Shown here one piece after another: positions 517-60,626 of a stretch of DNA of 64,000 bases. Made by a program: the position numbers and the translations under genes. Origin of the DNA: Pseudobutyrivibrio ruminis AD2017 (GTDB taxonomy: Bacteria; Bacillota; Clostridia; Lachnospirales; Lachnospiraceae); contig NZ_AUJQ01000009.1 of assembly GCF_000424305.1 (NCBI RefSeq), forward strand, positions 62,001 to 126,000. Direction: 5' to 3'. Below the pieces are notes generated by a model. It was not told where the DNA came from, searched no databases, and worked only from the letters and a program-made list of their open reading frames with translations. Each line of letters opens with the position of its first letter. The stretch's first letter is position 1.

Positions 517-1359
517 ATGAGCGGAACAGTTTATTTAGTTGCAACTCCAATCGGAAACCTTGAGGATATGACTTTTCGCGCGGTGAGAATCCTTAAAGAG
601 GTAGATTTGATTGCGGCAGAAGATACTAGAAATTCAATAAAGCTATTAAATCATTTTGAGATAGATACACCAATGACCAGCTACCATGAATTCAATAAGG
701 TAGATAAAGCAATCACTCTTATTGAAAAGCTTAAAGAAGGACAAAACATTGCGGTCATTACTGATGCAGGAACTCCTGGCGTATCTGACCCAGGCGAAGA
801 GCTGGTAAAGATGTGTTACGAGGAAGGAATTGAGGTTACATCGGTTCCTGGCCCAGCTGCATGTATCACTGCAGTAACAATGTCCGGACAGGCCTGCAGA
901 CGCTTTGCATTTGAGGCATTTTTACCAAAAGACAAAAAAGAACGTCGAAGAGTTCTTGAAGAGACAAAGAATGAAACTAGAACAATCATCATTTATGAGG
1001 CGCCACATCATCTGATTGGTACCCTTAAGGAGCTTAGAGACGTCCTTGGTGAGGATAGAGGAATTACCCTTTGTAGAGAACTTACCAAAAAGCATGAGGA
1101 AAAAGAAAAGACTACAATTGGCGGAGCACTTAAGTCTTATGAAACTAAAGAGCCAAGAGGAGAATACGTGCTAGTTATCGCTGGCAAGTCAAAGGCCGAG
1201 GTAATAGAAGAAGCAAGAGCAGCTTTTGATGAAATGTCCATTGAAGAACACATGCAGATGTATTTAGACCAGGGCATGGATAAGAAAGAAGCTATGAAGG
1301 CAGTTGCAAAGGATAGGGGAGTTAGCAAGCGTGATATTTATAATGCGCTTCTAGATTAA
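517..1359 (+). CDS. rsmI: 16S rRNA (cytidine(1402)-2'-O)-methyltransferase
   Basis: RsmI methylates the 2'-O of C1402 in the decoding centre of 16S rRNA. The 280-residue length and tetrapyrrole-methylase fold are as expected: the start YLVATPIGNLEDMT, then LIAAEDTRNS, AVITDAGTPGVSDPG and VPGPAA. The ATG at 517 follows a GAGG-containing ribosome site. It is in a tight run with the upstream tRNA methyltransferase and the downstream PAP2-like gene (10 bp gap), so probably one operon. Nothing unusual seen. Confidence 0.95.
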   Translation: MSGTVYLVATPIGNLEDMTFRAVRILKEVDLIAAEDTRNSIKLLNHFEIDTPMTSYHEFNKVDKAITLIEKLKEGQNIAVITDAGTPGVSDPGEELVKMCYEEGIEVTSVPGPAACITAVTMSGQACRRFAFEAFLPKDKKERRRVLEETKNETRTIIIYEAPHHLIGTLKELRDVLGEDRGITLCRELTKKHEEKEKTTIGGALKSYETKEPRGEYVLVIAGKSKAEVIEEARAAFDEMSIEEHMQMYLDQGMDKKEAMKAVAKDRGVSKRDIYNALLD

Positions 1360-1369
1360 AGGAGAAATA

Positions 1370-1828
1370 ATGAATTTTATCGCAGATTTATTTACAAATA
1401 AGATTTTTATTGCGCCAGCATCAGCCTGGTTCTTAGCTCAAATATTAAAGGTCATTATTGATACTGTAAAATCAGGCTTCTGTAAGGAGCGTTTAATCGG
1501 CGGCGGTGGAATGCCTAGCTCACATGCTGCTACAGTAACAGGACTTGTTGTTATAACAGGAGCAATATATGGAGGCGGCTCATTTGAACTTGTAATGGCT
1601 CTGTTTTTCGCATTTATTGTTATATATGATGCGAGAGGTGTTCGCTATGAAACTCAGCGTCAGGGTATAGCATTAAATAATCTTAATGATGAAAGAAAAG
1701 AAGAAGGCAAGCAGCCACTTGATATTATCAAGTTCAAGGAAAAGCTTGGACATACTATTCCAGAGCTTGTGGCTGGCATGGTTCTTGGCGTTATTTGCGC
1801 TGTGATTGTGTATCATTTACCATTCTAG
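1370..1828 (+). CDS. Divergent PAP2 family membrane protein (DUF212, YuiD-like)
   Basis: 152-residue integral membrane protein of the divergent PAP2/DUF212 family, related to acid phosphatase/vanadium haloperoxidase proteins. The phosphatase-like motif GGMPSSHAA is present near residues 43-52, and ARGVRYETQRQG and HTIPELVAGMVLG are typical family stretches. About four hydrophobic segments are seen. The substrate is unknown; a lipid phosphate is the usual guess from the fold. An AAGGAGAA ribosome site lies just before the ATG. Confidence 0.85.
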   Translation: MNFIADLFTNKIFIAPASAWFLAQILKVIIDTVKSGFCKERLIGGGGMPSSHAATVTGLVVITGAIYGGGSFELVMALFFAFIVIYDARGVRYETQRQGIALNNLNDERKEEGKQPLDIIKFKEKLGHTIPELVAGMVLGVICAVIVYHLPF

Positions 1829-30035: not shown

Positions 30036-30310
30036 TGTAAAAATCCTCTCTTTTGTTTAAATCTATTTGGGAATCTCCCTTTAACTATCTACGATTATAA
30101 AAAATGGAGAAATTGTGAACAATGTTAGAATAACCAAAAATAACAAAATCCTTTCGTTATTTTGACAAGCCTATGTCAAAACTGCACAAATATAGAGTGC
30201 TGAAATTGAGCATTTACACTATAGTTAAAGATATAATGTATATAAAAGAATGGTTAGTGTGGTATAATACATTGGAGTATATATATTAATAACATAGGGA
30301 GATTGTTATT
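30036..30310. promoter_or_regulatory. Divergent promoter region between msmK and gdpP
   Basis: No gene is seen. For the right-hand gene an extended -10 is clear: TG (30260-30261), G, TATAAT (30263-30268). No -35 matches. The minus-strand promoter of msmK must also lie here but I cannot place it with confidence. Confidence 0.5.
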
Positions 30311-49442: not shown

Positions 49443-49781
49443 TGTATATATGGCTATGAGGGTCTTTGTGATATAGATTTAGCTAGGGGTGTTTGGGTAG
49501 TTTGGGCGCGAGTCAATGTATTTGCTAGTGCCGCTGAGTAGACGCGCCCAAAATTGAACCATCTTTAGTGGTTATTTGGGCGGAGAATAATGTAATTATA
49601 AGCTTTGATGAAGACATCCGCCCAAGAAAAAGCATGATATAGCCAAATTTGTGGGCGGCCAAAACGATTCTATAAGCTTCGTAAAGAAAATCCGCCCAAA
49701 TTCAAGGATTTTCAAGAAATAATTGGGCGGATGATACGATATCACTGGGCTCGTAGGATTACTCCGCCCAACAATATCTAT
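49443..49781. other. Gene-free stretch after the atp terminator
   Basis: No coding frame is seen. Its main content is the four-unit GC-rich dyad array at 49501-49771, described separately; the first 58 bp show nothing recognisable. Confidence 0.6.
49501..49771. repeat. Four-unit array of GC-rich dyads, about 74-bp period
   Basis: Each unit has a left arm TTGGGCG and a right arm CGCCCAA. Left/right arms: unit A 49501-49510/49543-49552 (TTTGGGCGCG with CGCGCCCAAA, perfect 10 bp); B 49576-49584/49617-49625; C 49651-49659/49691-49699; D 49723-49731/49763-49771. Spacers inside units are 32, 32, 31 and 31 nt, and the left arms lie 74, 75 and 72 bp apart. Spacers differ strongly, though units B and C share short pieces (TATAAGCTT). 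It is not a CRISPR array. Unit D ends 10 bp before the stop codon of the minus-strand nuclease-like gene. Confidence 0.85.
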
Positions 49782-50558
49782 TTAATTTAGTAGAAAACTT
49801 ACGGCAGCCACAGCCTCATTGTAGCTAAATGGTTTCGCCTTTGATTCAAAGGTTGTTATTAGGTTTTTACCTTGGAAAATGCCATAGCTATAATATACCC
49901 TAAGTTTTTTGAAGGCTGCCAAAGCGTAGTCTTCGTTATCCATTAAACCAAAGTGTTCCCAGTAGAAAACTTCTCCAGTTATAGGATGCTTAAATGTGAA
50001 ATCAGGATAGAAAGCTCTATTACCTATTATCAATTCACATTCATAGCGATAAGCAATATTATTTTCAGAAAGAACCATATCAATAAATACTTCTGATTTA
50101 GAACGTACCTTTTTACCAGAGGGGCAAGGAAAAGATAGCTGTTCAGGATGACTAGGATTTGTATTATATTTTTCTTTAGACCAGTTATTTTCAGGAAGAT
50201 TGTTATTATCAAAGTTTAAGAGTTCACAAATCCTTGGATTTGACTTGTATTTAAAAAGATTATATTCATTTTCAGGTGAATGGCTCAATAAGAGTTCTAT
50301 AGATGATAGTCGCTCTTTTAGAGTAGCCAATTCTAATTGCATAAGCTTTTTATGAGCAAGATTCTTTGCAAGAACTATTTCGGAAGAGGGAATATAATCA
50401 GTTTTGTTATTTAAGCGTCGATAGAATTTGGTATATTTTCCATTAGACCTAAATAGTAAATCCCCATCAGGTAAAGTACTTATTCTATTTTCTAAATCAT
50501 GGATTTTGTCTGAAATAGAATGATATTGCACATTTAAATAATTTGTAATATAAATCAC
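49782..50558 (-). CDS. PD-(D/E)XK nuclease-like hypothetical protein
   Basis: 258 residues. N-terminal half is helical, Leu/Asn-rich and charged; the C-terminal half looks like a PD-(D/E)XK nuclease fold: RSKSEVFIDMVL, YRYECEL, YPDFTFKHP and YWEHFGLMDNEDYA (acidic residues in SKSE, PDF and WEH, with His where Lys is usual). Similar frames are frequent in Lachnospiraceae as uncharacterised proteins (family memory, not searched). The GTG at 50558 abuts its AAGGAG, leaving no normal spacing, so the start is uncertain. The gene is AT-rich and lies beside the dyad array. Confidence 0.65.
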   Translation of the reverse strand: MIYITNYLNVQYHSISDKIHDLENRISTLPDGDLLFRSNGKYTKFYRRLNNKTDYIPSSEIVLAKNLAHKKLMQLELATLKERLSSIELLLSHSPENEYNLFKYKSNPRICELLNFDNNNLPENNWSKEKYNTNPSHPEQLSFPCPSGKKVRSKSEVFIDMVLSENNIAYRYECELIIGNRAFYPDFTFKHPITGEVFYWEHFGLMDNEDYALAAFKKLRVYYSYGIFQGKNLITTFESKAKPFSYNEAVAAVSFLLN

Positions 50559-50720
50559 TCCTTAATATTAAGGATAGGAAATGAATTGATTAAAAAAATT
50601 AGACTAATATATGTTAACAGCATCATATAGTGATGTCAAGCTAAGACTTTAAAAAGATAGTTAAAACCATTAGAATAAGACATAGGTTGTAAAAATACAA
50701 AAGTTAAAGAGGATATAAAA

Positions 50721-51188
50721 ATGAATTATATAGGCGATTTGAGAAAAGTGATTGGTCACGATACCATAATGACTGTAGGCTGTGGCGTGTTAGTGGAAAA
50801 TGAAAAGGGCCAGGTGCTATTGCAAAAGCGAAGCGATAATGGTCAGTGGTGTGTGCCGGGAGGCGCATTAGAGCTTGGGGAGACATATAAGGAAGCTGCA
50901 GCAAGAGAACTTAGGGAAGAGGTTGGTATAGAAGTTAAGGAGCTTCAGCTGTTTGGCCTGTACTCAGGTGATGATAGGATGATTACATATCCAAACCAGG
51001 ATGTTGTCTATTCACTTGCAGTGATTTTTAAGACAAATAAGTACACGGGAACTATCTCAGATGAGGATTCCGAGGTGCTTGAACATAGATTTTTTGACCC
51101 ACAGGATATTCCAAAGGATTTGTTTGCACCTGATGCAAGACCAATAACAGATTGGGCTAAGGGAAAAACTCAAGTTGTAGTAGAATAG
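50721..51188 (+). CDS. NUDIX hydrolase
   Basis: 155 residues. The Nudix box is complete: GALELGETYKEAAARELREEVGIE (positions about 54-77; G-x5-E-x7-REUxEE form). A pyrophosphohydrolase of nucleotide-type substrates; the substrate is not decided. AAGAGGATATAAAA precedes the ATG. Probably co-transcribed with greA. Confidence 0.92.
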   Translation: MNYIGDLRKVIGHDTIMTVGCGVLVENEKGQVLLQKRSDNGQWCVPGGALELGETYKEAAARELREEVGIEVKELQLFGLYSGDDRMITYPNQDVVYSLAVIFKTNKYTGTISDEDSEVLEHRFFDPQDIPKDLFAPDARPITDWAKGKTQVVVE

Positions 51189-51209
51189 TTGTAAATGGAG
51201 GTAACACAA

Positions 51210-51713
51210 ATGGGAGAGAGACTTACAAAAGGTGATATAGAAAAGATTCAGGCAGAGATAGATGAGCGTAAGCTTGTGCTTCGTCCAAAGCTTCTAGAGG
51301 AAGTTAAGGAGACAAGGGCCCAGGGAGATTTGTCCGAGAACTTCGAGTACCATGAGGCAAAGCGTGCCAAGAACATGAACGATAGCCGTATTCGTTACTT
51401 AGAGAAGATGCTAAAGTTTGCTGAGGTAGTAGATGATAGCAGTGCCGATGACGAAGTAGGAATCAATAACACAGTTACAATTTACATCCCAGAAGACGAT
51501 TGTGAGGAAACTTATAAGCTTGTAACAAGCATTCGTGGTAACTCACTTAAAGGGCTAATTTCCATAGAATCACCACTTGGAGCCGCAATACGTGGTAAAC
51601 ATGTGGGCGATAGAGTCATGGTAAAAGTAAATGATAATTATTCCTACGAAGTAGAGATTAGGTTGATAGATAAATCAACAACAGACGAGGATGACCAGAT
51701 AAAAAGATATTAA
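51210..51713 (+). CDS. greA: Transcription elongation factor GreA
   Basis: 167 residues. Rescues backtracked RNA polymerase by stimulating transcript cleavage. N-terminal coiled coil with the acidic tip (GDLSENFEYHEAKRAKN) and the C-terminal FKBP-like domain with ESPLGAAIRGKHVGD. ATG 51210 is chosen as GGAGG (51197 region) is then correctly spaced; the earlier ATG 51195 would begin MEVTQ. Confidence 0.95.
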   Translation: MGERLTKGDIEKIQAEIDERKLVLRPKLLEEVKETRAQGDLSENFEYHEAKRAKNMNDSRIRYLEKMLKFAEVVDDSSADDEVGINNTVTIYIPEDDCEETYKLVTSIRGNSLKGLISIESPLGAAIRGKHVGDRVMVKVNDNYSYEVEIRLIDKSTTDEDDQIKRY

Positions 51714-51737
51714 TATTATACGGGATACAGATTTTTG

Positions 51738-51780
51738 AGAGTGCTAGCAGGGTTATTTTAGACTAGCACTCTATTATTTT
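51738..51780 (+). terminator. Rho-independent terminator after greA
   Basis: AGAGTGCTAG (51738-51747) pairs perfectly with CTAGCACTCT (51763-51772) around a 15-nt loop, followed by ATTATTTT. Confidence 0.85.
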
Positions 51781-51789
51781 GAGGTAATT

Positions 51790-53073
51790 ATGATTGTTGT
51801 AGTAGATAGCTTGGTAAATTATTTGATATACATATTTCTTATACACTTTTGCTGGAGGATTCACTTTAGAAAAAAGATATGGTGCATAGCGTCATCAGTG
51901 GCAATAAGTGTAGTATCAGGAATAATAGCGAATATATACGGGGATTCTCTTATATTTTATTTGCTATGTAGTGTAGTGGCAATGCTATTGTTATTTGAAT
52001 ATAAAATACCAAATCTCATACTGATAACCTTAGGACTGACATGGTTCATGGGGATGATGGATACTTATTCACTAAACATTCTTCGCATATTGACTGGAAA
52101 ATATGCTCGCACCGAAACTATAGAATGGTGGCAGCTTACAGCCTATCTAATCTCATTTGCTATAGAGTTTTGTATGTATTACTTTGTGCTAAAACGAAAT
52201 GGGGTTTACCTAAAGAGTCTAAAGAAGCGGTATTTAGTAGGTCTATTGCTTTTGACACTTATATTTGAGCTTGTTGTAACATACGTTTTTTCGGTGCTTT
52301 ATGGCAACATTAATGAACATGAATGGTACATCCATATTAGATTTGCATTGTGCCTGATAGGAGCCATATATTCAATATACATTACGCTACAGCTGGCTGT
52401 GAGTAATTACCAATACGAAAAACAAAACAATCAATTAGCAAAGGCATTAAAGATACAGCAAGATCAATATCAGTATCAGAAGGATACCAACAAGAATCTA
52501 AGAAAATTTCGTCATGACCTAATCAATCATATTGGAGCCATGCAGGAGTTGCTTGCCAAGGAACAATACAATAATGCCAAGGATTATATAGAAAAGACTT
52601 GGAAAGTAACAGAATCCCTGGCTACTAAGATTAATACAGGCGACGATTATGTGGATGCGATTTTAAACTATTATGCATATTGCTGTGAGAAGAAAGATAT
52701 AGATTTTTCATTGACAGGAAAGTTGATTAGGCCATTAGACATTGATGTGCTTGATTGTACTACCCTGCTTGGAAATTCACTGCAGAATGCTTTGGAGGCA
52801 GCTGAAAAACTGGGCGCAGGATTTGTAAAAGTAGAGTTAATAGACCACGCAGATGAGGTATTTATCTCAGTGTACAATTCATGCCAAGATATAGAGTTTT
52901 CTAGTGTCACTGATATCGAGACTACAAAGCCTGATAAAAAGAATCATGGATTTGGTCTTAAAAACATAGCGTCAATTGTTGATAAGTACAAGGGTGAATA
53001 CTATATAACTGTGGATAAAGCACCTGCTGGAAACGTCTTTAAGCTTGATATTTCCCTTCCACGAAGAGGTTAG
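51790..53073 (+). CDS. GHKL-type sensor histidine kinase (AgrC-like)
   Basis: 427 residues. The N-terminal half has about six membrane helices (from MIVVVDSLVNYLIYIFLIHF), as in peptide-sensing AgrC/ComD-type kinases. A coiled linker leads to the H-box with His242 in FRHDLINHIGAM, then the N box LLGNSLQNALEAA (Asn329) and GFGLKNIAS. GAGGTAATT precedes the ATG. The response regulator starts 3 bp downstream. The signal is unknown; no peptide-pheromone gene is seen nearby. Confidence 0.88.
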   Translation: MIVVVDSLVNYLIYIFLIHFCWRIHFRKKIWCIASSVAISVVSGIIANIYGDSLIFYLLCSVVAMLLLFEYKIPNLILITLGLTWFMGMMDTYSLNILRILTGKYARTETIEWWQLTAYLISFAIEFCMYYFVLKRNGVYLKSLKKRYLVGLLLLTLIFELVVTYVFSVLYGNINEHEWYIHIRFALCLIGAIYSIYITLQLAVSNYQYEKQNNQLAKALKIQQDQYQYQKDTNKNLRKFRHDLINHIGAMQELLAKEQYNNAKDYIEKTWKVTESLATKINTGDDYVDAILNYYAYCCEKKDIDFSLTGKLIRPLDIDVLDCTTLLGNSLQNALEAAEKLGAGFVKVELIDHADEVFISVYNSCQDIEFSSVTDIETTKPDKKNHGFGLKNIASIVDKYKGEYYITVDKAPAGNVFKLDISLPRRG

Positions 53074-53076
53074 AAA

Positions 53077-53781
53077 ATGATAATAGGAATTGTTGATGAT
53101 GAAGCCCTATGGGCTGAAAAGATAAAAGAGTATATTGAAGAATACCTGGCGCTTGTAGATGTGAAAGATTACAGGATTAATATGTATGCAGATGAAAAGT
53201 CCCTGCTACCTGAGGTAGATAATATTGACCTGCTATTTTTAGATGTTGAGCTTGCAGATGGTAAGAATGGCTTTGATATTGCAGAGCATATACAACAATT
53301 GGACTGCGATATGAAGATATGCTTTCTGACATCCCATATTGAATTTGCGCGACTTGGGTATAAGGTCAATGCATTTAGATATATAGATAAGCTACATCTA
53401 GAGGAGATTGATGAAGCGTTGGCATCATACATATTAACATATGCAAATGCAAGCTACATTGATTGTAAGAATGCACTAGGTGTAGAGTGCAAGATTAACC
53501 TTGGGGAAGTTATTTACATCGAAAAGGTAGATAGAAAAATCTGCTATCGTATGAAAGATGGTGCAGTCTATTACAATGAAGGAAACCTAAAGGACATTGC
53601 AGCAGAATATCAGGATATTGGGTTGATATTAATACAAAGGTCCTTCGTGATAAATATGAAATATGTAGATAGTTACGATAGCAGGCAGGTGACCCTCCTA
53701 GGTGGAATCAGCCTGAACATCAGCAGAGACAGATTGCAGGATTTCAAAAAGAGATACTTTGATTATCGTAGGAAGATGTAG
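53077..53781 (+). CDS. LytTR-family response regulator
   Basis: 234 residues. Receiver domain at 1-120 with the phosphoacceptor Asp56 in LLFLDVELADGKNG, and a C-terminal LytTR DNA-binding domain (about 130-230: VEKVDRKICYRMKDGAVYYNEG, FVINMKYVDSYDSRQVTLLGG). Such regulators bind direct repeats with about one or two DNA turns spacing; a perfect repeat of that kind begins 7 bp after this gene. Confidence 0.9.
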   Translation: MIIGIVDDEALWAEKIKEYIEEYLALVDVKDYRINMYADEKSLLPEVDNIDLLFLDVELADGKNGFDIAEHIQQLDCDMKICFLTSHIEFARLGYKVNAFRYIDKLHLEEIDEALASYILTYANASYIDCKNALGVECKINLGEVIYIEKVDRKICYRMKDGAVYYNEGNLKDIAAEYQDIGLILIQRSFVINMKYVDSYDSRQVTLLGGISLNISRDRLQDFKKRYFDYRRKM

Positions 53782-53787
53782 TGGCAA

Positions 53788-53825
53788 TTTGTGTAGTTTA
53801 GACATTTTTTGTGTAGTTTAGACAT
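53788..53825 (+). promoter_or_regulatory. Perfect 18-bp direct repeat, putative LytTR binding site
   Basis: TTTGTGTAGTTTAGACAT occurs at 53788-53805 and 53808-53825, a 20-bp period. A TATAAC -10 lies at 53855-53860, so the second copy ends about 30 bp upstream of it, the position of activator sites that replace a poor -35 (53832-53837, AACATA). Confidence 0.75.
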
Positions 53826-53867
53826 GAAATCAACATAAGCCTCTTGATTTGTGATATAACATCTAGG

Positions 53868-53880
53868 CGGCAAGAAGCCG
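53868..53880 (+). promoter_or_regulatory. Short leader hairpin and ribosome site before the lysozyme gene
   Basis: CGGC (53868-53871) pairs with GCCG (53877-53880) around AAGAA in the leader RNA, and CAAGGAGG then stands just upstream of the ATG at 53912. Confidence 0.4.
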
Positions 53881-53911
53881 TAATGTAATACAAGTCAAGG
53901 AGGACAAACAA

Positions 53912-55471
53912 ATGCCAATAAAATGGGAAAGAATGTTTCCGACCGAAGGTTGGAAACCAAACAAGCCACACAATGTAAAATCAGTGGCTACATCTAACAT
54001 AGCGGTACTTGAAAATGAAGAAGTAAATAATACAGAAAAGAAAAGCAGATTTGGTGAATCTGCTACATTGGAGCTTAGTGACAATTATTTCAGAGAAAAG
54101 AGTCCTAATAGTGCAGCAATGCTGATGGAGAGCAAGGCAGCAGCTAGAACGCTAAAAGTAGGTTCAAGAGGTGAGGATGTAAAAAGATTACAGGAAAACT
54201 TAAATACATTAGGTTATAACACAGGCAAGCCTGATGGAATCTTTGGTAATGGAACTAAAAATGCCGTAATTGCTTTTCAGCGCGCTAAGGGATTAACTGC
54301 AGATGGAATAGTAGGAAGTGGAACTCAAAATGCAATTACAAGGGCATTGAATGAAAAAACAGCAGCAGCCAATAGCAATATTTTAAAGGTAGGCAGCAAA
54401 GGCGCAAAGGTAACTCAATTGCAGAGAAATCTTAATTCGTTAGGTTATAATGCGGGAACACCTGATGGAGCTTTTGGCACAGGAACAAAAAATGCAGTGG
54501 TTTCATTCCAAAAGACATATGGATTGAGTGCTGATGGAGTTGCTGGAAAGGCTACGCAGGACGCAATAGCTACAACTATTAGCAGAAAAAGTAAAGGCAT
54601 TCTTTCAAAAGGCCAGGTAAGTAATGATGTAAGGAATCTTCAGAACGACTTAAAGACTCTTGGCTACTTAGCAAGTAATGCTGATGGAGCATTTGGTACT
54701 GGTACAGAAGCAGCAGTTAAAGCATTTCAGAAGAATCATAATTTAACCCAAGATGGTTTAGTTGGTGCTAGCACAAGGAGTCATATTAGTGCTGCAGTAG
54801 AGCGGAAGAAACAAAAACAAGCAACTTCAACAACTAATCCTTCACAACCAAAGAATTCTGAGCCTGAGAATCATAGCAAGGAGTCCGAGAGGCTTGAAAT
54901 GAGTGATAAAGGATTTTCATTATTAATGCAATATGAAGTTGGACAAAATGCTAATGGAGTAGACTATGATAAGAATGGAAATATTACAGCTATAGCTATA
55001 AAAGATATTGGGGATGGAAAATATACAGTAGGGTTTGGAAACACAGTAGACAAAAATGATTCCACACAGATTACTGAATATAGGGAAAAGTATGGGCTAG
55101 ATGTTACCAAAATTGGAACTAAAGTTGATATAGGAACATGTAAAAAAATATATAATGATCATGTAAATTATTATACGAGCAAGGTCGATGATTTGCTGAA
55201 AAGAACAAACTATCATGCGAAGCAAAATGAATATGAAGCTTTAGTTCTTGCGGTATATAATAGACCGGCATTAGCTAATAAGGGTAAAGCATTAGAAAAT
55301 CTCTTGAAAAACAACGTCAAAGATAAAAAAGAGTGGGAAAAACAAATAATGGATGATTATCATAATGGAGTATCCACTCAAAAATGGAATATTTACAATA
55401 AGGGATGGAGAAATAGAACATTGGATGAGATAGAACTATTTTTCGAAAGCGACTATAAGCGAAACCATTAA
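53912..55471 (+). CDS. Three PG-binding domains plus C-terminal lysozyme-like protein, no signal peptide
   Basis: 519 residues. Starts MPIKWERMFPTEGWKPNKPH with no signal peptide or membrane helix. Three peptidoglycan-binding domains lie at about 80-138, 157-215 and 229-290 (each with QxNLNxLGYN and a DGxFGxGT stretch). A Lys/Ser/Pro-rich linker leads to a GH24-like lysozyme domain from about 328: Glu342 in LLMQYEVGQ and Thr372 in KYTVGFGNTV as probable catalytic residues, and NEYEALVLAVYNRP as the usual helical part. It is preceded by the LytTR repeats and followed by a lipoprotein and a small protein. Since nothing shows export, it may act on lysis of its own cell or be delivered by an unknown route. 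Confidence 0.78.
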   Translation: MPIKWERMFPTEGWKPNKPHNVKSVATSNIAVLENEEVNNTEKKSRFGESATLELSDNYFREKSPNSAAMLMESKAAARTLKVGSRGEDVKRLQENLNTLGYNTGKPDGIFGNGTKNAVIAFQRAKGLTADGIVGSGTQNAITRALNEKTAAANSNILKVGSKGAKVTQLQRNLNSLGYNAGTPDGAFGTGTKNAVVSFQKTYGLSADGVAGKATQDAIATTISRKSKGILSKGQVSNDVRNLQNDLKTLGYLASNADGAFGTGTEAAVKAFQKNHNLTQDGLVGASTRSHISAAVERKKQKQATSTTNPSQPKNSEPENHSKESERLEMSDKGFSLLMQYEVGQNANGVDYDKNGNITAIAIKDIGDGKYTVGFGNTVDKNDSTQITEYREKYGLDVTKIGTKVDIGTCKKIYNDHVNYYTSKVDDLLKRTNYHAKQNEYEALVLAVYNRPALANKGKALENLLKNNVKDKKEWEKQIMDDYHNGVSTQKWNIYNKGWRNRTLDEIELFFESDYKRNH

Positions 55472-55489
55472 CAAGGAGAATAATCATTT

Positions 55490-56371
55490 ATGAGAAAGAT
55501 GTATATAGCTATAGGACTGATAACTTTAGCCATATTATTAATCGGATGTGCAAAAAAGGATATAAATAACATATTCCAGGTAAATGAAGTAGTAACTAAT
55601 AAAGAAAGTGAAATAGCTGGAGAGAAAGAATTAACTTTAATTGCGTTAAACGTTGAAAATTCTCCATTTAAAGCTAACAATCAATTATTTGAGTTTTTAA
55701 ATAATAAAAATTTTGAAATTGAAAAATATAAAAAAGATTGTGATGCTACCCAAGAATATTATGCGTATTCTCTAGAGGTTTATGATAAATGGGAAAATGA
55801 AATAAATGAACTAAGTAGTATTGCAAAACTGCCAAATGAATCTAATATTATATTTCAAGATTATATGGATGAGTGCAAAAAGTTGAATAGCTATATATAT
55901 AGTACAAATTGTATGTATGCTGGAAGTATGTATATACCAATTTCGTGTGACCAACTAAAAATGAAATGTGAATTGCTATACGGAGAGCTATTGTCAGTAT
56001 ATCCAGAAAGCATAAGTGAATACTCTGACGATGTAATAAATGATGTTAGATGGATTAATTATGATGATACCTTTTTTACATTTGAATACTCAAATGATTT
56101 TGAAGAACTATTAAATGACTATAAGATAGATGAAAAAAGCATTTTTGAACTGCGAAATATTATAATGAACGAATGCGAGCTGCTGAATAATTTAAATAAT
56201 GAGTTTGACTTTAGTAATTACGGAAAAAACTGTCTTCAAATGGATGATGAGTTGATGAAGCTTGAATATGAAAATAAGTTTGATGAATCAATAATAACGA
56301 GGAATGAGAAGAATCGTCTGAAAATTTTTATCAACGAATTAGTGAGTTTACAGTATCTAATAGATTGTTAA
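55490..56371 (+). CDS. AT-rich lipoprotein of unknown function
   Basis: 293 residues. Lipoprotein signal MRKMYIAIGLITLAILLIGC with the lipid-attachment Cys20 (LIGC lipobox). The mature part is acidic and Asn/Lys/Ile-rich with many Cys and Tyr, and helical in its second half. The region 55470-56640 is clearly richer in A+T than its surroundings. AACAAGGAG precedes the ATG. It lies 18 bp after the lysozyme gene and is a natural candidate for an immunity or partner protein of the lysozyme (inference). No family recognised. Confidence 0.6.
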   Translation: MRKMYIAIGLITLAILLIGCAKKDINNIFQVNEVVTNKESEIAGEKELTLIALNVENSPFKANNQLFEFLNNKNFEIEKYKKDCDATQEYYAYSLEVYDKWENEINELSSIAKLPNESNIIFQDYMDECKKLNSYIYSTNCMYAGSMYIPISCDQLKMKCELLYGELLSVYPESISEYSDDVINDVRWINYDDTFFTFEYSNDFEELLNDYKIDEKSIFELRNIIMNECELLNNLNNEFDFSNYGKNCLQMDDELMKLEYENKFDESIITRNEKNRLKIFINELVSLQYLIDC

Positions 56372-56395
56372 AAAATAAAAAAGGAATTATTTGAA

Positions 56396-56644
56396 ATGAA
56401 AGTAGCGACACTAAATTATAGTAAATTATTCAATTCAGTTGGAATACATCTACATCAAAGATATCCAAGTCTCCGCCATGAAATATTGCAAAAAGAAATA
56501 GAACATGCTATTGAAAGTTCTAATACAAAGCTTTCACTGGTGGATGGAATATTTAATGTAACACTACAAGGAGAAGACCTAACAGATGGCAAGCCAGGGC
56601 AAGTATATAAAGTGGCTGTAGAATTAGGTGAAGGGCTAGATTAA
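56396..56644 (+). CDS. Small hypothetical protein (82 aa)
   Basis: 82 residues, no signal or membrane helix. Sequence runs MKVATLNYSKLFNSVGIHLH, then a helical part (RHEILQKEIEHAIESS), and ends in TDGKPGQVYKVAVELGEGLD. GGAATTATTTGAA precedes the ATG. Last gene of the lysozyme unit, followed by a terminator. No family recognised. Confidence 0.55.
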   Translation: MKVATLNYSKLFNSVGIHLHQRYPSLRHEILQKEIEHAIESSNTKLSLVDGIFNVTLQGEDLTDGKPGQVYKVAVELGEGLD

Positions 56645-56669
56645 GGTAAATTATATTTAAGTCAAAAAA

Positions 56670-56704
56670 GGCGCATAGCAACTAGTTTGCTATACGTCTT
56701 TTTT
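56670..56704 (+). terminator. Rho-independent terminator of the lysozyme unit
   Basis: GGCGCATAGCAA pairs with TTGCTATACGTC with one mismatch and one G-T pair, followed by a T run to 56704. Confidence 0.78.
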
Positions 56705-56708
56705 CGCA

Positions 56709-56742
56709 CTTTAGACATTTTTTATAAATAATATGGTAAAAT
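56709..56742 (+). promoter_or_regulatory. Half-site and extended -10 of the next gene
   Basis: CTTTAGACAT at 56709-56718 shares TTTAGACAT with the LytTR repeats. TG (56734-56735), G, TAAAAT (56737-56742) is an extended -10, 41 bp before the ATG. Confidence 0.4.
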
Positions 56743-56782
56743 ATACTATGCATAATAATGTTTGAGAAAATGGGGAAGAATT

Positions 56783-58045
56783 ATGGTAAAAGAGAAACTT
56801 AGTCAAATCGGGGAGACAGTTCTTGAAAAAATTGATGGGCTTGATGTGAAGGATAAGCTTATCGAGCATAGCTTTAACCATTCGGATATAACAAGAGATG
56901 ATTTTATGCTGAAGGGAGCTCTTGCCAGTGAAGGATATGATTGGTGGTGGCACAGCTTCACCGGTCATAACAAACAGACGGGCGAGGAAAAGGCTTTCTT
57001 TATCGAGTTTTTCACAATCAACCCAGAGCTAGGTGGCGATGAGCCAGTGTTTGGCCAGCTGCCAGAGAATAAAGCATCGGGCGTAAAGCCATCCTACATG
57101 ATGGTGAAGGTAGGCTGCTGGGGCGAAGGCGCAAAACAGATGCATCGCTTCTTTGGCTGGAACAAGGTCAACATCAAGGAGGATGTACCATTTCTCATAA
57201 GTGCAGATGATTGCTTCTGCTCTGAGACTCGAACCCTTGGCAAGGTAGAGGTTACAGAGGAAGATGCCAAGAACCATCCAGAGTGGATGTGCCAGGCTGG
57301 TAAGATGGTTTGGGATCTTAACATCGAAAAGCAGATAGCTTTCAACGTGGGCTACGGCGCAGGCTGGGCGTCACGTGAAATAGAGGCATTTGAAATGTTC
57401 TGGCATGCAGAAGGCATGAAGACATTATTTGCAGGTTCAGTTATACTAGACGGTGTCGAATACGAAGTCAGCCCAGATAGCTGTTACGGCTATGCAGATA
57501 AAAATTGGGGTAAGGACTTCACATCTCCATGGGTGTGGCTTGCAAGCTCACATCTTAAGAGTAAGGTATCAGGAAAATGGCTGGAAAACAGCGCATTTGA
57601 TATCGGAGGAGGCCGTCCAAAGGTTAGAACTGGCCACAGCTTTGATGATGTAATCCTTGGAGCATTTTGGTATGAGGGTCAGCCTTACGAGTTCAACTTT
57701 TCAAGATTTTGGACTCTCACCAGTACAGATTTCAATTGCACCACAGAGGGTGAGCAGGTAGTATGGGAAATTACCCAGGAGACACCGCTTGCCAAATTAG
57801 AAGCTAAAATCACCTGTGATAAAAAGGATATGCTTCTTATAAACTACGAGGCACCGAACGGTGAAAAGCGCCACAATAATCTATGGAATGGCGGCAACGG
57901 CACAGGCGAGATTAAGCTATATAAGAAAATTCTCAAGACCAAGGACACTAAGGCCAATAAAAAAGCCGAGTGGAAATGGGAGCTTGTGGATGATATGGAA
58001 GCCTATAATATAGGTTGCGAGTTCGGCAAGTACGACGAGCAATAA
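56783..58045 (+). CDS. Tocopherol cyclase-like (lipocalin-like) protein
   Basis: 420 residues, cytoplasmic, similar to tocopherol cyclase/AttH-CrtC-type double lipocalin-like proteins: SEGYDWWWHSFTGH, FFIEFFTINP, the central YGYADKNWGKDFTSPWVWLASSHL and SFDDVILGAFWYEGQPYEF. The substrate is unknown; in anaerobic Clostridia tocopherol itself is unlikely. ATG 56783 is chosen because GGGGAAG precedes it and MVKEKLSQ starts a soluble frame. Confidence 0.7.
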   Translation: MVKEKLSQIGETVLEKIDGLDVKDKLIEHSFNHSDITRDDFMLKGALASEGYDWWWHSFTGHNKQTGEEKAFFIEFFTINPELGGDEPVFGQLPENKASGVKPSYMMVKVGCWGEGAKQMHRFFGWNKVNIKEDVPFLISADDCFCSETRTLGKVEVTEEDAKNHPEWMCQAGKMVWDLNIEKQIAFNVGYGAGWASREIEAFEMFWHAEGMKTLFAGSVILDGVEYEVSPDSCYGYADKNWGKDFTSPWVWLASSHLKSKVSGKWLENSAFDIGGGRPKVRTGHSFDDVILGAFWYEGQPYEFNFSRFWTLTSTDFNCTTEGEQVVWEITQETPLAKLEAKITCDKKDMLLINYEAPNGEKRHNNLWNGGNGTGEIKLYKKILKTKDTKANKKAEWKWELVDDMEAYNIGCEFGKYDEQ

Positions 58046-58072
58046 GTAATAATAGATTGGAGAATAGTTAAA

Positions 58073-59509
58073 ATGGCAGTTTTAGCAGGTTTACAGCCAG
58101 AAAGAGTATTTCATTATTTTGAGGAGATTTGTAGTATCCCTCACCCAAGTTATCACGAGGAAAAGATTAGTGCATATCTTGTAGAATTTGCAAAGGCACA
58201 CAATCTTGAATATTACACAGATGACCTTTACAACGTAATCATGATTAAGGAAGCTTCAGAGGGAATGGAGAATGTAGCTCCATTAATCCTTCAGGGCCAC
58301 ATGGATATGGTTGCTGAGCAGGAGCCAGATTGCAAGAAGGACATGCTTACAGAAGGTCTTGATCTTGAAGTAGTTGATGGATTCGTTACAGCTAAGGGTA
58401 CAACACTTGGCGGTGATGACGGAATCGCAGTAGCTATGGCACTTGCAATTTTAGAGGACGATACACTTAAGCACCCACGTCTTGAGGTAATCATTACAGT
58501 ATCTGAGGAAGTAGGTATGGAAGGTGCAGCAGGCATCGATGTATCAATGCTTAAGGGTCGCAAGATGCTTAACCTTGATTCTGAGGAAGAAGGACATTTC
58601 CTTAGCGGATGTGCCGGTGGATGCCGAATGGATATTGAGTACCCATTTAAGAAGGAATCAGTTAAGGGCGCACTTGTTTCAATCGAAGTTAAGGATTGTA
58701 CAGGTGGACACTCAGGCACAGAAATCATCAAGGGTAGAGCAAATGCTACACAGATGGTAAACAGAATCCTTGCAGCCGGTATCGATGTTGCTGATGTTTG
58801 CCTTGCAGATTATGTAGGTGGTACAAAGGACAATGCCATCCCACGTGCTACAACAGCAAAGGTAGTTACAAATGCAGATGCTATCAAGGCTATGGAGGCT
58901 GAGGCAGCAGCTATTAAGAATGAGTACGCAGTTACAGACCCAGAGATGAAAATCGAAATCAAGTCTGAAGGTAATGTAGTAGTTGATGGCGTAAATCCAG
59001 CAGATACAAGAAAGATTGTAGAGTTAATTCTTTCTTTACCAAACGGAGTTCAGGCTATGAGCCACGATATCGAGGGCTTAGTTGAGACTTCATTAAACTT
59101 AGGTATCCTTAACTTACTTGAGGACGAGCTTAAGTTCTCATTCTCACTTAGAAGCTCAGTAGATAGCGCAAAGGCCGCTCTTATGCGCAAGGTAAGAATG
59201 ATAGCTGAAGGCTTCGGCTGCAAAATATCTACTCATGGTGAGTACCCAGCATGGGAGTTCAAGCGTGAATCTACATTCAGAGATGAGCTTGTAGCTTTAT
59301 ATAAAGAGATGACAGGCGAGGATGCCATCGTTGAGACTATGCACGCAGGTGTTGAGTGCGGACTTTTAGCATCTAAGCTTCCAGGACTTGATGCAGTATC
59401 AATCGGTCCAGAGCTTTACGATATTCATACTCCAAAGGAGCGCCTTGGAATTGCTTCTACAGAGAGAATATACAATTACGTTCGTCGCGTAATCGAAATG
59501 CAGAAATAA
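58073..59509 (+). CDS. pepD: Aminoacyl-histidine dipeptidase
   Basis: 478 residues, M20-type zinc metallopeptidase that cleaves Xaa-His dipeptides. Motifs: LQGHMDMVAE (metal His and Asp), GTTLGGDDGIAVAMALAI (bridging Asp), SEEVGMEGAAG (catalytic Glu), DCTGGHSG, and PELYDIHTPKERL. GGAGAATAGTTAAA precedes the ATG. Cytoplasmic. Confidence 0.95.
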   Translation: MAVLAGLQPERVFHYFEEICSIPHPSYHEEKISAYLVEFAKAHNLEYYTDDLYNVIMIKEASEGMENVAPLILQGHMDMVAEQEPDCKKDMLTEGLDLEVVDGFVTAKGTTLGGDDGIAVAMALAILEDDTLKHPRLEVIITVSEEVGMEGAAGIDVSMLKGRKMLNLDSEEEGHFLSGCAGGCRMDIEYPFKKESVKGALVSIEVKDCTGGHSGTEIIKGRANATQMVNRILAAGIDVADVCLADYVGGTKDNAIPRATTAKVVTNADAIKAMEAEAAAIKNEYAVTDPEMKIEIKSEGNVVVDGVNPADTRKIVELILSLPNGVQAMSHDIEGLVETSLNLGILNLLEDELKFSFSLRSSVDSAKAALMRKVRMIAEGFGCKISTHGEYPAWEFKRESTFRDELVALYKEMTGEDAIVETMHAGVECGLLASKLPGLDAVSIGPELYDIHTPKERLGIASTERIYNYVRRVIEMQK

Positions 59510-59552
59510 TAAGCAATTAAACAAATAAGGGGTAACAGGAAGGAGAAGGACT

Positions 59553-60626
59553 ATGCTTAGAATCGGAATGCTTACAAGTGGTGGTGACTGCCAGGCATTG
59601 AACGCTGCTATGCGTGGTGTTGTTAAGGGTTTGGCTGCAAATGTGAAGGACCTTGAGGTTTACGGCTTCTTCAATGGCTATAAGGGTCTGATTTATGGGG
59701 ATTACAGACTCCTTACCAGCCAGGATTTCTCAGGTATTTTGACACGTGGTGGCACTATCCTGGGCTCTAGCCGTCAGCCATTCAAGCTCATGCGTGAGCC
59801 AGATGAGAACGGCCTTGATAAGGTAGAGGCAATGAAGTCCAACTATTACAAGCTAAACCTTAGCTGCCTGGTTATCCTTGGTGGTAACGGAACACAGAAG
59901 ACAGCTAATCTTCTTAGAGAGGAAGGGCTTAACATTATCCATCTTCCAAAGACTATTGATAACGATATCTTCGGAACAGATGTGACCTTCGGTTTCCAGA
60001 GTGCCATTGATATCGCATGTAACACCATCGATTGCATCCATACTACAGCATCATCTCATAGCCGTGTATTTATCGTAGAGGTTATGGGACATAAGGTAGG
60101 CTGGCTTACATTGTATGCAGGTGTTGCATCAGGAGCTGATATCATCCTGCTTCCAGAGATTCCATACGATATCAAGAAGGTCATAAAGGCCATCAATCAT
60201 CGTGCGGAAGAAGGTAAGGGCTTCACCATCCTTGCAGTTGCCGAGGGCGCAATATCCAAGGAAGATGCAAAGCTTTCGAAGAAGGATTACAAGAAGAAAT
60301 TAGAGACCTCCAAATATCCATCAGTTTCCTATGAAATCGCTGATAGAATCCAGAAGGAAACAGGTATTGAGGTACGTGTCACTGTTCCGGGACACATGCA
60401 GCGAGGCGGTAGCCCAGATCCATTCGACAGAGTACTTTGTACACGTCTTGGTTCAGCAGCTGCACAGGCTATCATGGACGGAGATTTCGGTAACATGATT
60501 GCAATGGTAGATGGCAAGACAAAGCGCATTCCTCTTGAAAAGGTTGCAGGAAAGCTTAAGGTAGTTGAGCCAGATTGCCAGATGATAGAAGAAGCTAAGC
60601 GAATCGGCATTAGCTTCGGTGATTAA
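59553..60626 (+). CDS. pfkA: 6-phosphofructokinase, mixed-type
   Basis: 357 residues. Phosphorylates fructose 6-phosphate in glycolysis. MLTSGGDCQALNAAMRG, ILGSSRQPF, catalytic PKTIDND (Asp136), MGHKVGWLTLYAG, and PGHMQRGGSPDPFD. The phosphate-donor switch residues are Gly113 (GGNGT, ATP-type) and Lys133 (PKTIDND, usual in PPi-type), so donor use may not be plain ATP. GAAGGAGAAGG precedes the ATG. Confidence 0.93.
   Translation: MLRIGMLTSGGDCQALNAAMRGVVKGLAANVKDLEVYGFFNGYKGLIYGDYRLLTSQDFSGILTRGGTILGSSRQPFKLMREPDENGLDKVEAMKSNYYKLNLSCLVILGGNGTQKTANLLREEGLNIIHLPKTIDNDIFGTDVTFGFQSAIDIACNTIDCIHTTASSHSRVFIVEVMGHKVGWLTLYAGVASGADIILLPEIPYDIKKVIKAINHRAEEGKGFTILAVAEGAISKEDAKLSKKDYKKKLETSKYPSVSYEIADRIQKETGIEVRVTVPGHMQRGGSPDPFDRVLCTRLGSAAAQAIMDGDFGNMIAMVDGKTKRIPLEKVAGKLKVVEPDCQMIEEAKRIGISFGD

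What the first reader, a model, noticed from the sequence alone, without database searches (positions are those of the whole stretch)
51790..56644. Candidate signal-controlled muralytic module: GHKL kinase, LytTR regulator, signal-less lysozyme, lipoprotein, small protein
The order sensor kinase - LytTR regulator - perfect direct repeats - lysozyme with three PG-binding domains - lipoprotein - 82-aa protein forms one compact unit between a greA terminator and a terminator at 56670. The lysozyme has no signal peptide, while the next gene is a lipoprotein facing the same wall. This resembles the logic of fratricide or programmed lysis systems (quorum-type kinase, murein hydrolase, lipid-anchored protector), but I recognise neither small partner.
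Basis: partly seen in the sequence, partly recalled or inferred. Interest (0 to 1): 0.75.

Follow-up and report, generated by a model that had tools for sequence, protein, structure and literature searches.

The report
Swappable wall-cutting toxin with paired immunity
A rumen bacterium appears to carry a signal-controlled wall-cutting toxin whose cutting end and protective partner gene are swapped between related species, which suggests a weapon against neighbouring bacteria that uses an unknown exit route.

Summary
In detail: kinase, LytTR regulator, a perfect 18-nt repeat pair, a signal-less PG-binding lysozyme, a lipoprotein and an 82-aa ORF lie as described. The genus is Pseudobutyrivibrio. 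Best reading: a polymorphic muralytic toxin-immunity locus. Leader plus PG-binding repeats are conserved (66-72% identity in three sister genomes) while the catalytic tip is swapped (phage lysozyme, VgrG3-C-like, phage-tail lysozyme, one unassigned type). Each of six effector loci is followed by a membrane-anchored or lipoprotein gene, mostly unrelated between loci; one carries a Pfam LprI lysozyme inhibitor. The window's tip recurs in another genus fused to an LXG (type VII toxin) domain. In a sister genome with 96-98% identical flanks the same site lacks the toxin but keeps two promoter copies, an effector fragment and three partner-like proteins. The repeats recur 20 bp apart, 40 nt before an extended -10, at four divergent loci. 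Not supported: Agr-type quorum sensing (no AgrB found), LprI membership of the lipoprotein, prophage origin. Unknown: export route, signal, and whether this lipoprotein inhibits this lysozyme; the closest relative of the tip (G002) has a neighbour without detectable similarity. All function is inferred from sequence.

The parts
51790..53073 (+). GHKL (AgrC/HPK10-like) sensor kinase, 427 aa
   Evidence: Pfam HATPase_c_5 1.5e-18; NCBIfam AgrC model 9.3e-16 but 58 bits against a 500-bit cut-off; 98% identical in G023, 51-52% in G017 and G015, 38% in G020
53077..53781 (+). LytTR response regulator, 234 aa
   Evidence: Pfam LytTR 3.3e-12, Response_reg 3.2e-9; orthologue in 5 of 29 genus genomes
53788..53825 (+). 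LytTR-type paired direct repeat, 18 nt exact, 20 bp apart (53788-53805 and 53808-53825)
   Evidence: same 20-bp geometry upstream of effectors in G017, G015 and G020 (two loci, one with a different repeat sequence) and twice in G023
53850..53860 (+). extended -10 (TGTGATATAAC), 40 nt after the start of the second repeat core
   Evidence: same 40-nt distance in G000, G017, G015, G020b and both G023 copies
53912..55471 (+). muralytic effector, 519 aa, no signal peptide
53912..54154 (+). conserved signal-less leader (about aa 1-81; xTLELSxxYF motif)
   Evidence: alignments; strong matches in 5 of 29 genus genomes, 6 loci; 1 of 397 family genomes, the window's own
54146..54820 (+). three PG_binding_1 repeats (about aa 79-303), the conserved shaft
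   Evidence: Pfam 2.3e-60, 3 stretches; with the leader 70% (aa 1-303), 72% (8-303) and 66% (24-304) identical in G017, G002, G015
54893..55471 (+). swappable catalytic tip, phage-lysozyme-like (aa 328-519)
   Evidence: Pfam Phage_lysozyme 6.5e-5; 56% identical tip in G002; LXG-fused tip in G100, E 3.4e-21; GC 31.1% against 39.3% for the conserved part
55490..56371 (+). lipoprotein, 293 aa, candidate immunity protein, no known relatives
   Evidence: hydrophobic start plus LLIGC lipobox by eye; no significant relative; GC 27.2%
56396..56644 (+). 82-aa ORF at the right cassette border, function unknown
   Evidence: of 41 genomes, 93% identical in G023 and a weak 34% hit in G033 (E 0.007); its fragments recur inside the G023 array
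56672..56696 (.). hairpin with T run closing the unit
   Evidence: named on the minus strand; not above shuffles; a 92% identical copy of 56567-56702 lies inside the G023 array

Best explanation
It is a polymorphic muralytic toxin-immunity cassette with its own two-component switch. Proposed working: (1, inferred) the membrane kinase senses an unknown signal and phosphorylates the LytTR regulator; (2, indirect evidence from conserved promoter geometry) the regulator binds the paired 20-bp-spaced repeats and turns on the promoter of the effector, the anchored partner and the 82-aa gene; (3, inferred, route unknown) the effector leaves the cell without a Sec signal, guided by its conserved leader or released by other means; (4, by homology) the PG-binding repeats hold it on peptidoglycan and the variable tip cuts the wall of susceptible neighbours; (5, inferred) the lipoprotein on the outer face of the membrane protects the producer and its kin. 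Different species carry different tips with different anchored partners, and partners can be kept after the toxin is lost.
For: Conserved leader and shaft with exchanged tips: Phage_lysozyme in the window, a 56% identical tip in G002, T6SS_VgrG3-like_C 7.8e-33 in G017 and Phage_lysozyme2 1.4e-24 in G015 (gene interrupted), and an unassigned tip in two loci of G020, the tips 61% identical to each other. Candidate partners are anchored: 11 of 12 examined (those after the six effectors, in the G023 array and in G100) reach a 15-residue hydropathy of 1.94-3.63 near the start, the twelfth (G023_214) 1.68, against -0.40 to 0.49 for 6 of 6 leader-bearing effectors. G020b carries a second lipoprotein that is LprI, the lysozyme-inhibitor family (2.3e-10). 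The tip recurs on an LXG protein followed by a 243-aa membrane-anchored protein in G100. Sister genome G023: flanks 97.7% and 96.2% identical, toxin gone, two promoter copies, 56 nt of effector, 82-aa-gene fragments and three partner-like proteins, two of which have relatives behind the G017 and G020 effectors. GC falls from 39.3% (leader and shaft) to 31.1% (tip) to 27.2% (lipoprotein). Promoter repeats conserved in sequence and exact geometry.
Against: No activity, inhibition or secretion has been measured. The nearest tip relative (G002, 56% identity) is followed by a 215-aa protein without detectable similarity to the lipoprotein, and no relative of the lipoprotein was found in 41 or in 397 genomes beyond marginal scores, so the pairing of this lysozyme with this lipoprotein is not shown. 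G002 also lacks the two-component pair and the repeats. LprI is common in the genus away from these loci (20 of 29 genus genomes), so its presence at one locus is only suggestive. The lipoprotein did not fold with confidence (pLDDT 37.7) and is not LprI by test. The tip model (pLDDT 66.3) matched T4 lysozyme only weakly (best entry titled T4 lysozyme E 0.05; 0 of 188 matches at E <= 0.001). Neither the T7SS nor the flagellar exporter tracks the effector. The toxin-loss array rests on one genome, 87% complete.
Confidence: 0.72

Rival explanations
1. A variant of the best reading on the exit step: release by lysis, as with colicins. The kinase switches on effector synthesis, some producer cells lyse, the signal-less lysozyme is set free and the lipoprotein protects kin; there is no export machine.
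For: No signal peptide in 6 of 6 leader effectors; no secretion gene recognised by eye directly beside the loci (not searched with profiles). An ABC permease and ATPase pair lies about 2.7 kb downstream of the G020b partners, with unrelated genes between.
Against: No holin or lysis gene was recognised by eye beside the loci (not searched with profiles); the leader is conserved more than release alone would seem to demand.
Confidence: 0.3
2. Another variant on the exit step: a type VII (Esx) secreted effector with a leader that does not look like LXG.
For: EssC above the cut-off in the window's genome, G002, G017 and G023; the same tip on an LXG protein in another genus.
Against: The leader has no LXG or WXG match. 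EssC is over the cut-off in 19 of 29 genus genomes with no visible link to the effector; G015 (89% complete) has none over it and G020 (83% complete) only a fragment.
Confidence: 0.25
3. Ordinary autolysin or wall-remodelling enzyme under a cell-envelope two-component system, with a regulatory lipoprotein.
For: LytTR systems control wall hydrolases in other Firmicutes (recalled); PG_binding_1 is common in housekeeping hydrolases, and 20 of 41 genomes match the full effector at E <= 0.001, those outside the genus only through the repeat region in the rows shown.
Against: No signal peptide; patchy presence (leader strong in 5 of 29 genomes); exchanged tips and partners; toxin-less array in G023.
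Confidence: 0.1
4. Remnant of a prophage endolysin captured by a regulator.
For: Phage lysozyme domain, endolysin PHROG matches and lack of a signal peptide, all typical of endolysins.
Against: No match of tip or lipoprotein in 50,697 phage records; of 600 IMG/VR stretches that held a pattern none encoded a relative of the tip; flanks are housekeeping genes; leader and regulator conserved at other loci.
Confidence: 0.03

Closest known systems
LXG polymorphic toxins of the type VIIb secretion system (PMC5555719: start of abstract in a listing and passages; PMC9600955: start of abstract in a listing; PMC9484751: abstract)
   Same: Conserved front part, variable toxin end, tandem immunity genes; the window's own lysozyme tip occurs on an LXG protein in another genus.
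   Different: No LXG domain; a PG-binding repeat shaft; own GHKL-LytTR switch; export route unknown.
X-T4SS lysozyme-like effector X-TfeXAC2609 with inhibitor X-TfiXAC2610 (PMC10933484; passages seen)
   Same: Lysozyme-like effector made in the cytoplasm and exported without Sec, with a lipobox-bearing inhibitor.
   Different: Gram-negative, delivered by a killing type IV system; that inhibitor is a beta-propeller, whereas the window's lipoprotein has no resolved fold.
T6SS muralytic effectors with LprI (DUF1311) immunity candidates (PMC12135965, PMC8867033; passages seen)
   Same: Varied muralytic domains on one carrier; LprI next to the effector, as in G020b here.
   Different: WHIX or LysM carriers and T6SS delivery; the window's own partner is not LprI by test.
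Orphan immunity gene arrays by effector displacement in Vibrio cholerae T6SS (PMC5361080; abstract seen)
   Same: Immunity genes kept after the effector is replaced, as read in G023.
   Different: Other delivery system and phylum.
Competence-linked fratricide of streptococci (recalled, not read)
   Same: LytTR-type switch, murein hydrolase, protective membrane protein.
   Different: The known hydrolase has a signal peptide, a pheromone gene lies with the switch, and the parts are not polymorphic cassettes (recalled).

Membership tests
Polymorphic toxin system | conserved N-terminal part with exchanged C-terminal toxin domains | tested here: met
   four tip types on one leader plus PG-binding carrier, in 6 loci of 5 genomes
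Polymorphic toxin system | adjacent gene that neutralises the toxin | tested here: inconclusive
   Anchored neighbour at 6 of 6 effector loci; one locus has LprI; neutralisation cannot be tested, and the G000 and G002 tips have neighbours without detectable similarity
Polymorphic toxin system | orphan or tandem immunity cassettes | tested here: met
   G023 array at the same site; one genome only, and the immunity role is itself inferred
Polymorphic toxin system | recognisable trafficking domain | tested here: not met
   No family specific to the leader; a few PHROG endolysin alignments start at aa 17 or 30 and run through it into the repeats
LXG/T7SSb effector | LXG (or WXG100-like) N-terminal domain | tested here: not met
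   No match in the window protein; matched in the G100 relative, 7.6e-17
Agr-type quorum-sensing system | AgrB peptide processor in the genome | tested here: not met
   None at E <= 0.001 in the window's genome, G015, G020 or G023; G017 has a clear one and G002 one at the 23-bit cut-off
LytTR-controlled promoter | paired direct repeats with about 20-22 bp period upstream of the promoter | tested here: met
   geometry described in PMC6193735 (9-bp repeats, 11-13 bp apart; passages); binding not tested
LprI (DUF1311) lysozyme inhibitor, for the window lipoprotein | profile match | tested here: not met
   No Pfam match; own LprI profile 1.8 bits, reached by 153 of 2000 shuffles
GH24/phage lysozyme, for the tip | family profile and catalytic Glu | tested here: met
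   Phage_lysozyme 6.5e-5, 23.7 bits against cut-off 22.3; YE and T-x-G-x-G-type motifs kept in G000, G002 and G100 by eye, their role recalled from T4 lysozyme; fold match weak; activity not tested

The most novel reading that the evidence does not exclude
The ~80-residue leader defines a new export signal for antibacterial wall-cutting proteins in Gram-positive rumen bacteria: a Sec-independent carrier (leader plus PG-binding shaft) that takes interchangeable muralytic tips out of the cell by an undescribed or repurposed route, switched on by its own kinase, with anchored non-homologous immunity proteins exchanged along with the tips.
Probability: 0.3. Interest if true: 0.82.

Novelty: new variant of a known kind. 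Interest (0 to 1): 0.62.

Why it matters
If true, it adds to the anaerobic rumen Lachnospiraceae a dedicated, signal-controlled wall-cutting weapon with exchangeable warheads, gives several new candidate inhibitors of muralytic enzymes, and opens a clear question: how a Gram-positive cell exports a lysozyme that lacks a signal peptide. It also shows that a lysozyme tip sits on carriers with different leaders (LXG and this one).

Tried and rejected
LprI idea for the window lipoprotein: by eye the helix TQEYYAYSLEVYDKWENEIN resembles LprI. One search was void (loci on the minus strand were read on the wrong strand). One search used 26 of the 30 fetched LprI loci (L072-L074 and L078 dropped as weak or other proteins; L049 still misread) and gave E 0.005 for the whole protein and 0.015 for the best stretch with one target, hhalign probability 0.8%. 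The profile used was built from 24 loci (L049 and the test protein L077 dropped; count checked): 1.8 bits, 153 of 2000 shuffles as high or higher (first 20 residues kept in place). Rejected.

Lipoprotein structure: single-sequence AlphaFold2, pLDDT 37.7, not searched further. Lysozyme tip: two sequences, pLDDT 66.3; of the 50 rows shown Foldseek listed mostly T4 lysozyme entries, with receptor constructs on top (T4-lysozyme fusions, as I recall; best E 0.0034); 0 of 188 at E <= 0.001.

Flagellar export idea: among 1318 frames of 40 aa or more from the window, 54 kb around the G000 flagellar FlhA gene and three EssC stretches (G000, G002, G017), the leader profile found no relative but the effector itself (next best E 1); FlhA is in 28 of 29 genomes and cannot discriminate. 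Weak leader hits: G004 8.1e-4 (a 379-aa signal-less protein without PG-binding domain), G018 0.18, G041 0.21, G010 0.87, G008 0.93 (only G004 and G018 were looked at); I do not count them as members.

T7SS link: no association. Agr link: no AgrB found. Prophage or plasmid: no support. A 2-mismatch copy of the repeat core at 30173 lies before an ABC transporter gene but is single, without a partner 20 bp away.
Full report
1. What is there. The region holds, in order and on one strand, a 427-aa GHKL kinase, a 234-aa LytTR regulator, a 130-bp gap with an exact 18-nt repeat pair, a 519-aa protein with three PG_binding_1 repeats and a phage-lysozyme domain, a 293-aa lipoprotein and an 82-aa ORF. 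Upstream are a NUDIX-like ORF (by eye) and greA, downstream a protein with a sub-cut-off Tocopherol_cycl match and a peptidase-like ORF (by eye). ARAGORN found no tRNA and cmscan no Rfam family at gathering score in the window.

2. Whose genome. The window is part of contig C8 of a 2.9-Mb genome.

3. Conserved carrier, exchanged tip. Residues 1-303, 8-303 and 24-304 are 70, 72 and 66% identical in G017, G002 and G015. Behind them come different domains: T6SS_VgrG3-like_C in G017 (7.8e-33) and phage tail lysozyme in G015 (1.4e-24, reading frame interrupted in that draft genome); a tip 56% identical to the window's in G002 (that protein was not scanned against Pfam); and in two loci of G020 an unassigned tip, 61% identical between the two. 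The leader profile has strong matches in 5 of 29 genus genomes (6 loci, E 1.8e-35 to 2.1e-22); five more genomes give weak hits between 8e-4 and 0.93. In a family sample of 397 genomes from 334 genera it matched only the window's own genome; only two genomes of this genus appear in the rows shown of that sample.

4. The tip on another carrier. Of 397 family genomes, 2 have the lysozyme tip at E <= 0.001: the window's own and G100. In G100 it is the end of a 536-aa protein that starts with an LXG domain (7.6e-17), followed by a 243-aa protein with an N-terminal membrane anchor. LXG proteins with variable toxin ends are T7SS effectors (PMC5555719 and PMC9600955, starts of abstracts in the listing; passages of the first). 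This is the best independent sign that the tip is a toxin module.

5. The partners. All six leader effectors are followed by one or more proteins with a strong hydrophobic start or lipobox. Counting those of G023 and G100 too, 11 of 12 such proteins reach 1.94-3.63 and the twelfth 1.68, whereas 6 of 6 leader effectors stay at 0.49 or below. G020b carries an LprI lipoprotein (2.3e-10); LprI is named as an immunity candidate beside T6SS muralytic effectors in PMC12135965 and PMC8867033 (passages). LprI is also common in the genus away from these loci (20 of 29 genus genomes, 26 of 61 in all), so its presence is suggestive only. A further anchored family (G017 320 aa, G020 333 and 320 aa, G023 513 aa) recurs at several loci (24-46% identity). 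The window's lipoprotein has no significant relative (in one search eleven other genomes gave hits of only 0.003-0.009). It is not LprI by test. The weak point: the window and G002 tips are 56% identical, yet their neighbours show no detectable similarity.

6. The same site in a sister genome. G023 matches the window at 97.7% from 49547 to 53878 and at 96.2% from 56382 to 60000, the end of the stretch compared. Between these borders the toxin and lipoprotein are missing. Instead there are, in order: the promoter, a 430-aa anchored protein (71% identical to the start of the G017 609-aa partner), an 82-aa-gene end with hairpin (92%), a second promoter (95%), 56 nt of effector (91%), a 214-aa protein, a short start of the 82-aa gene (88%), a 513-aa anchored protein, and the full 82-aa gene. 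This reads as tandem cassette exchange with loss of the toxin and retention of partners, as described for orphan immunity arrays in V. cholerae (PMC5361080, abstract). It is one genome, 87% complete.

7. Regulation. The regulator orthologue is found in 5 of 29 genus genomes (E <= 1e-30): directly before the effector in the window, G017, G015 and G020, and in G023 at the site just described. The genes around the unit differ by eye between G000/G023, G017, G015 and G020. Repeat pairs 20 bp apart stand in the window, G023 (twice), G017, G015 and G020b, each with an extended -10 exactly 40 nt after the start of the second repeat core. G020a has a different exact pair, also 20 bp apart; its contig holds another LytTR gene, 24% identical, about 4.5 kb away. 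G002 has neither repeats nor regulator. Repeats 9 bp long and 11-13 bp apart are a described LytTR site type (PMC6193735, passages). AgrB was not found in the window's genome, so an Agr peptide made by the cell itself is unlikely; the signal is unknown.

8. Export. EssC is over its cut-off in the window's genome, G002, G017 and G023, not in G015, and only a fragment is seen in G020; it is over the cut-off in 19 of 29 genomes overall. FlhA is in 28 of 29. Neither pattern picks a route. The leader resembles no protein of the flagellar or EssC stretches examined. An ABC permease and ATPase pair lies about 2.7 kb past the G020b partners (by eye); no such pair was noticed at the other loci, which were not scanned for it.

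9. Composition. GC falls from 39.3% (leader and shaft) to 31.1% (tip) and 27.2% (lipoprotein), then rises to 34.5% (82-aa) and 45.7% (next gene); the G017, G023 and G002 partners are 29.8-31.5%, the whole G017 and G002 effectors 35.8 and 35.5%. This fits separate acquisition of tip and partner.

10. Literature. No paper on such a system in Pseudobutyrivibrio is among the rows shown by my searches (open-licence PMC only): 15 of 22 papers, 15 of 29, 15 of 3,236, 4 of 4, 12 of 40, 10 of 702, 10 of 35. PMC13289728 (passages) reports nisin-like and other peptide bacteriocins for rumen isolates including this genus and has no occurrence of lysozyme, lysin or LytTR in its main text. PMC3482391 (passages) calls its one lipoprotein immunity protein exceptional and mentions PG-binding domains in toxin polypeptides. 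PMC10933484 (passages) gives the closest worked example: a cytoplasmic lysozyme-like effector with a lipobox-bearing inhibitor.

11. Verdict. Shown by sequence: conserved carrier, exchanged tips, anchored neighbours, promoter geometry, and one case of toxin loss with partner-like genes at the site. Inferred: toxicity, immunity, secretion, signal. It works like a polymorphic toxin-immunity system; of four defining features two are met, one is inconclusive (neutralisation) and one is not met (no known trafficking domain).

Noticed in passing
L094 (G004:C109), 643-1782 minus strand: A 379-aa signal-less protein with a TLELS-type stretch matching the leader profile at 8.1e-4 but with no Pfam domain at E <= 1; may hint that the leader motif is used more widely.
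   Followed up: partly
L021:185-1333: The gene before the G020b kinase is another signal-less 382-aa protein (MIIESSKVGMSSSRSYF...) with Asp-rich, EF-hand-like stretches by eye; such proteins may share an unknown export route.
   Followed up: no
L021:9064-11669: By eye, an FtsX-like ABC permease (650 aa) and an ABC ATPase (216 aa) downstream of the G020b partners, with unrelated genes between; possibly nothing to do with the effector.
   Followed up: no
window 56703-56723: A third, 83% copy of the 23-nt stretch around the LytTR repeat stands right after the closing hairpin, before the next gene, and is kept in G023; perhaps a scar of a former tandem cassette.
   Followed up: partly
window 30173-30188, minus strand: Single 2-mismatch copy of the repeat core about 140 bp upstream of a MalK-type ABC transporter gene; no partner copy 20 bp away.
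   Followed up: yes
L022:4433-6808 and L023:847-2979 (minus strand): In G002 and G018, 791- and 710-aa proteins that look signal-less by eye combine PG_binding_1 repeats with an Rv2525c-like glycoside-hydrolase domain and unassigned C-terminal parts, followed by membrane-protein ORFs; perhaps another polymorphic carrier.
   Followed up: partly
L100 (G000:C20): The window's genome has an EssC gene near an RHS-repeat-like protein (by eye) on a short contig.
   Followed up: no
window 49782-50558, minus strand: A 258-aa ORF upstream of the locus, nearly identical in G023, with no Pfam family above its cut-off; reads like a PD-(D/E)XK-type nuclease by eye.
   Followed up: no
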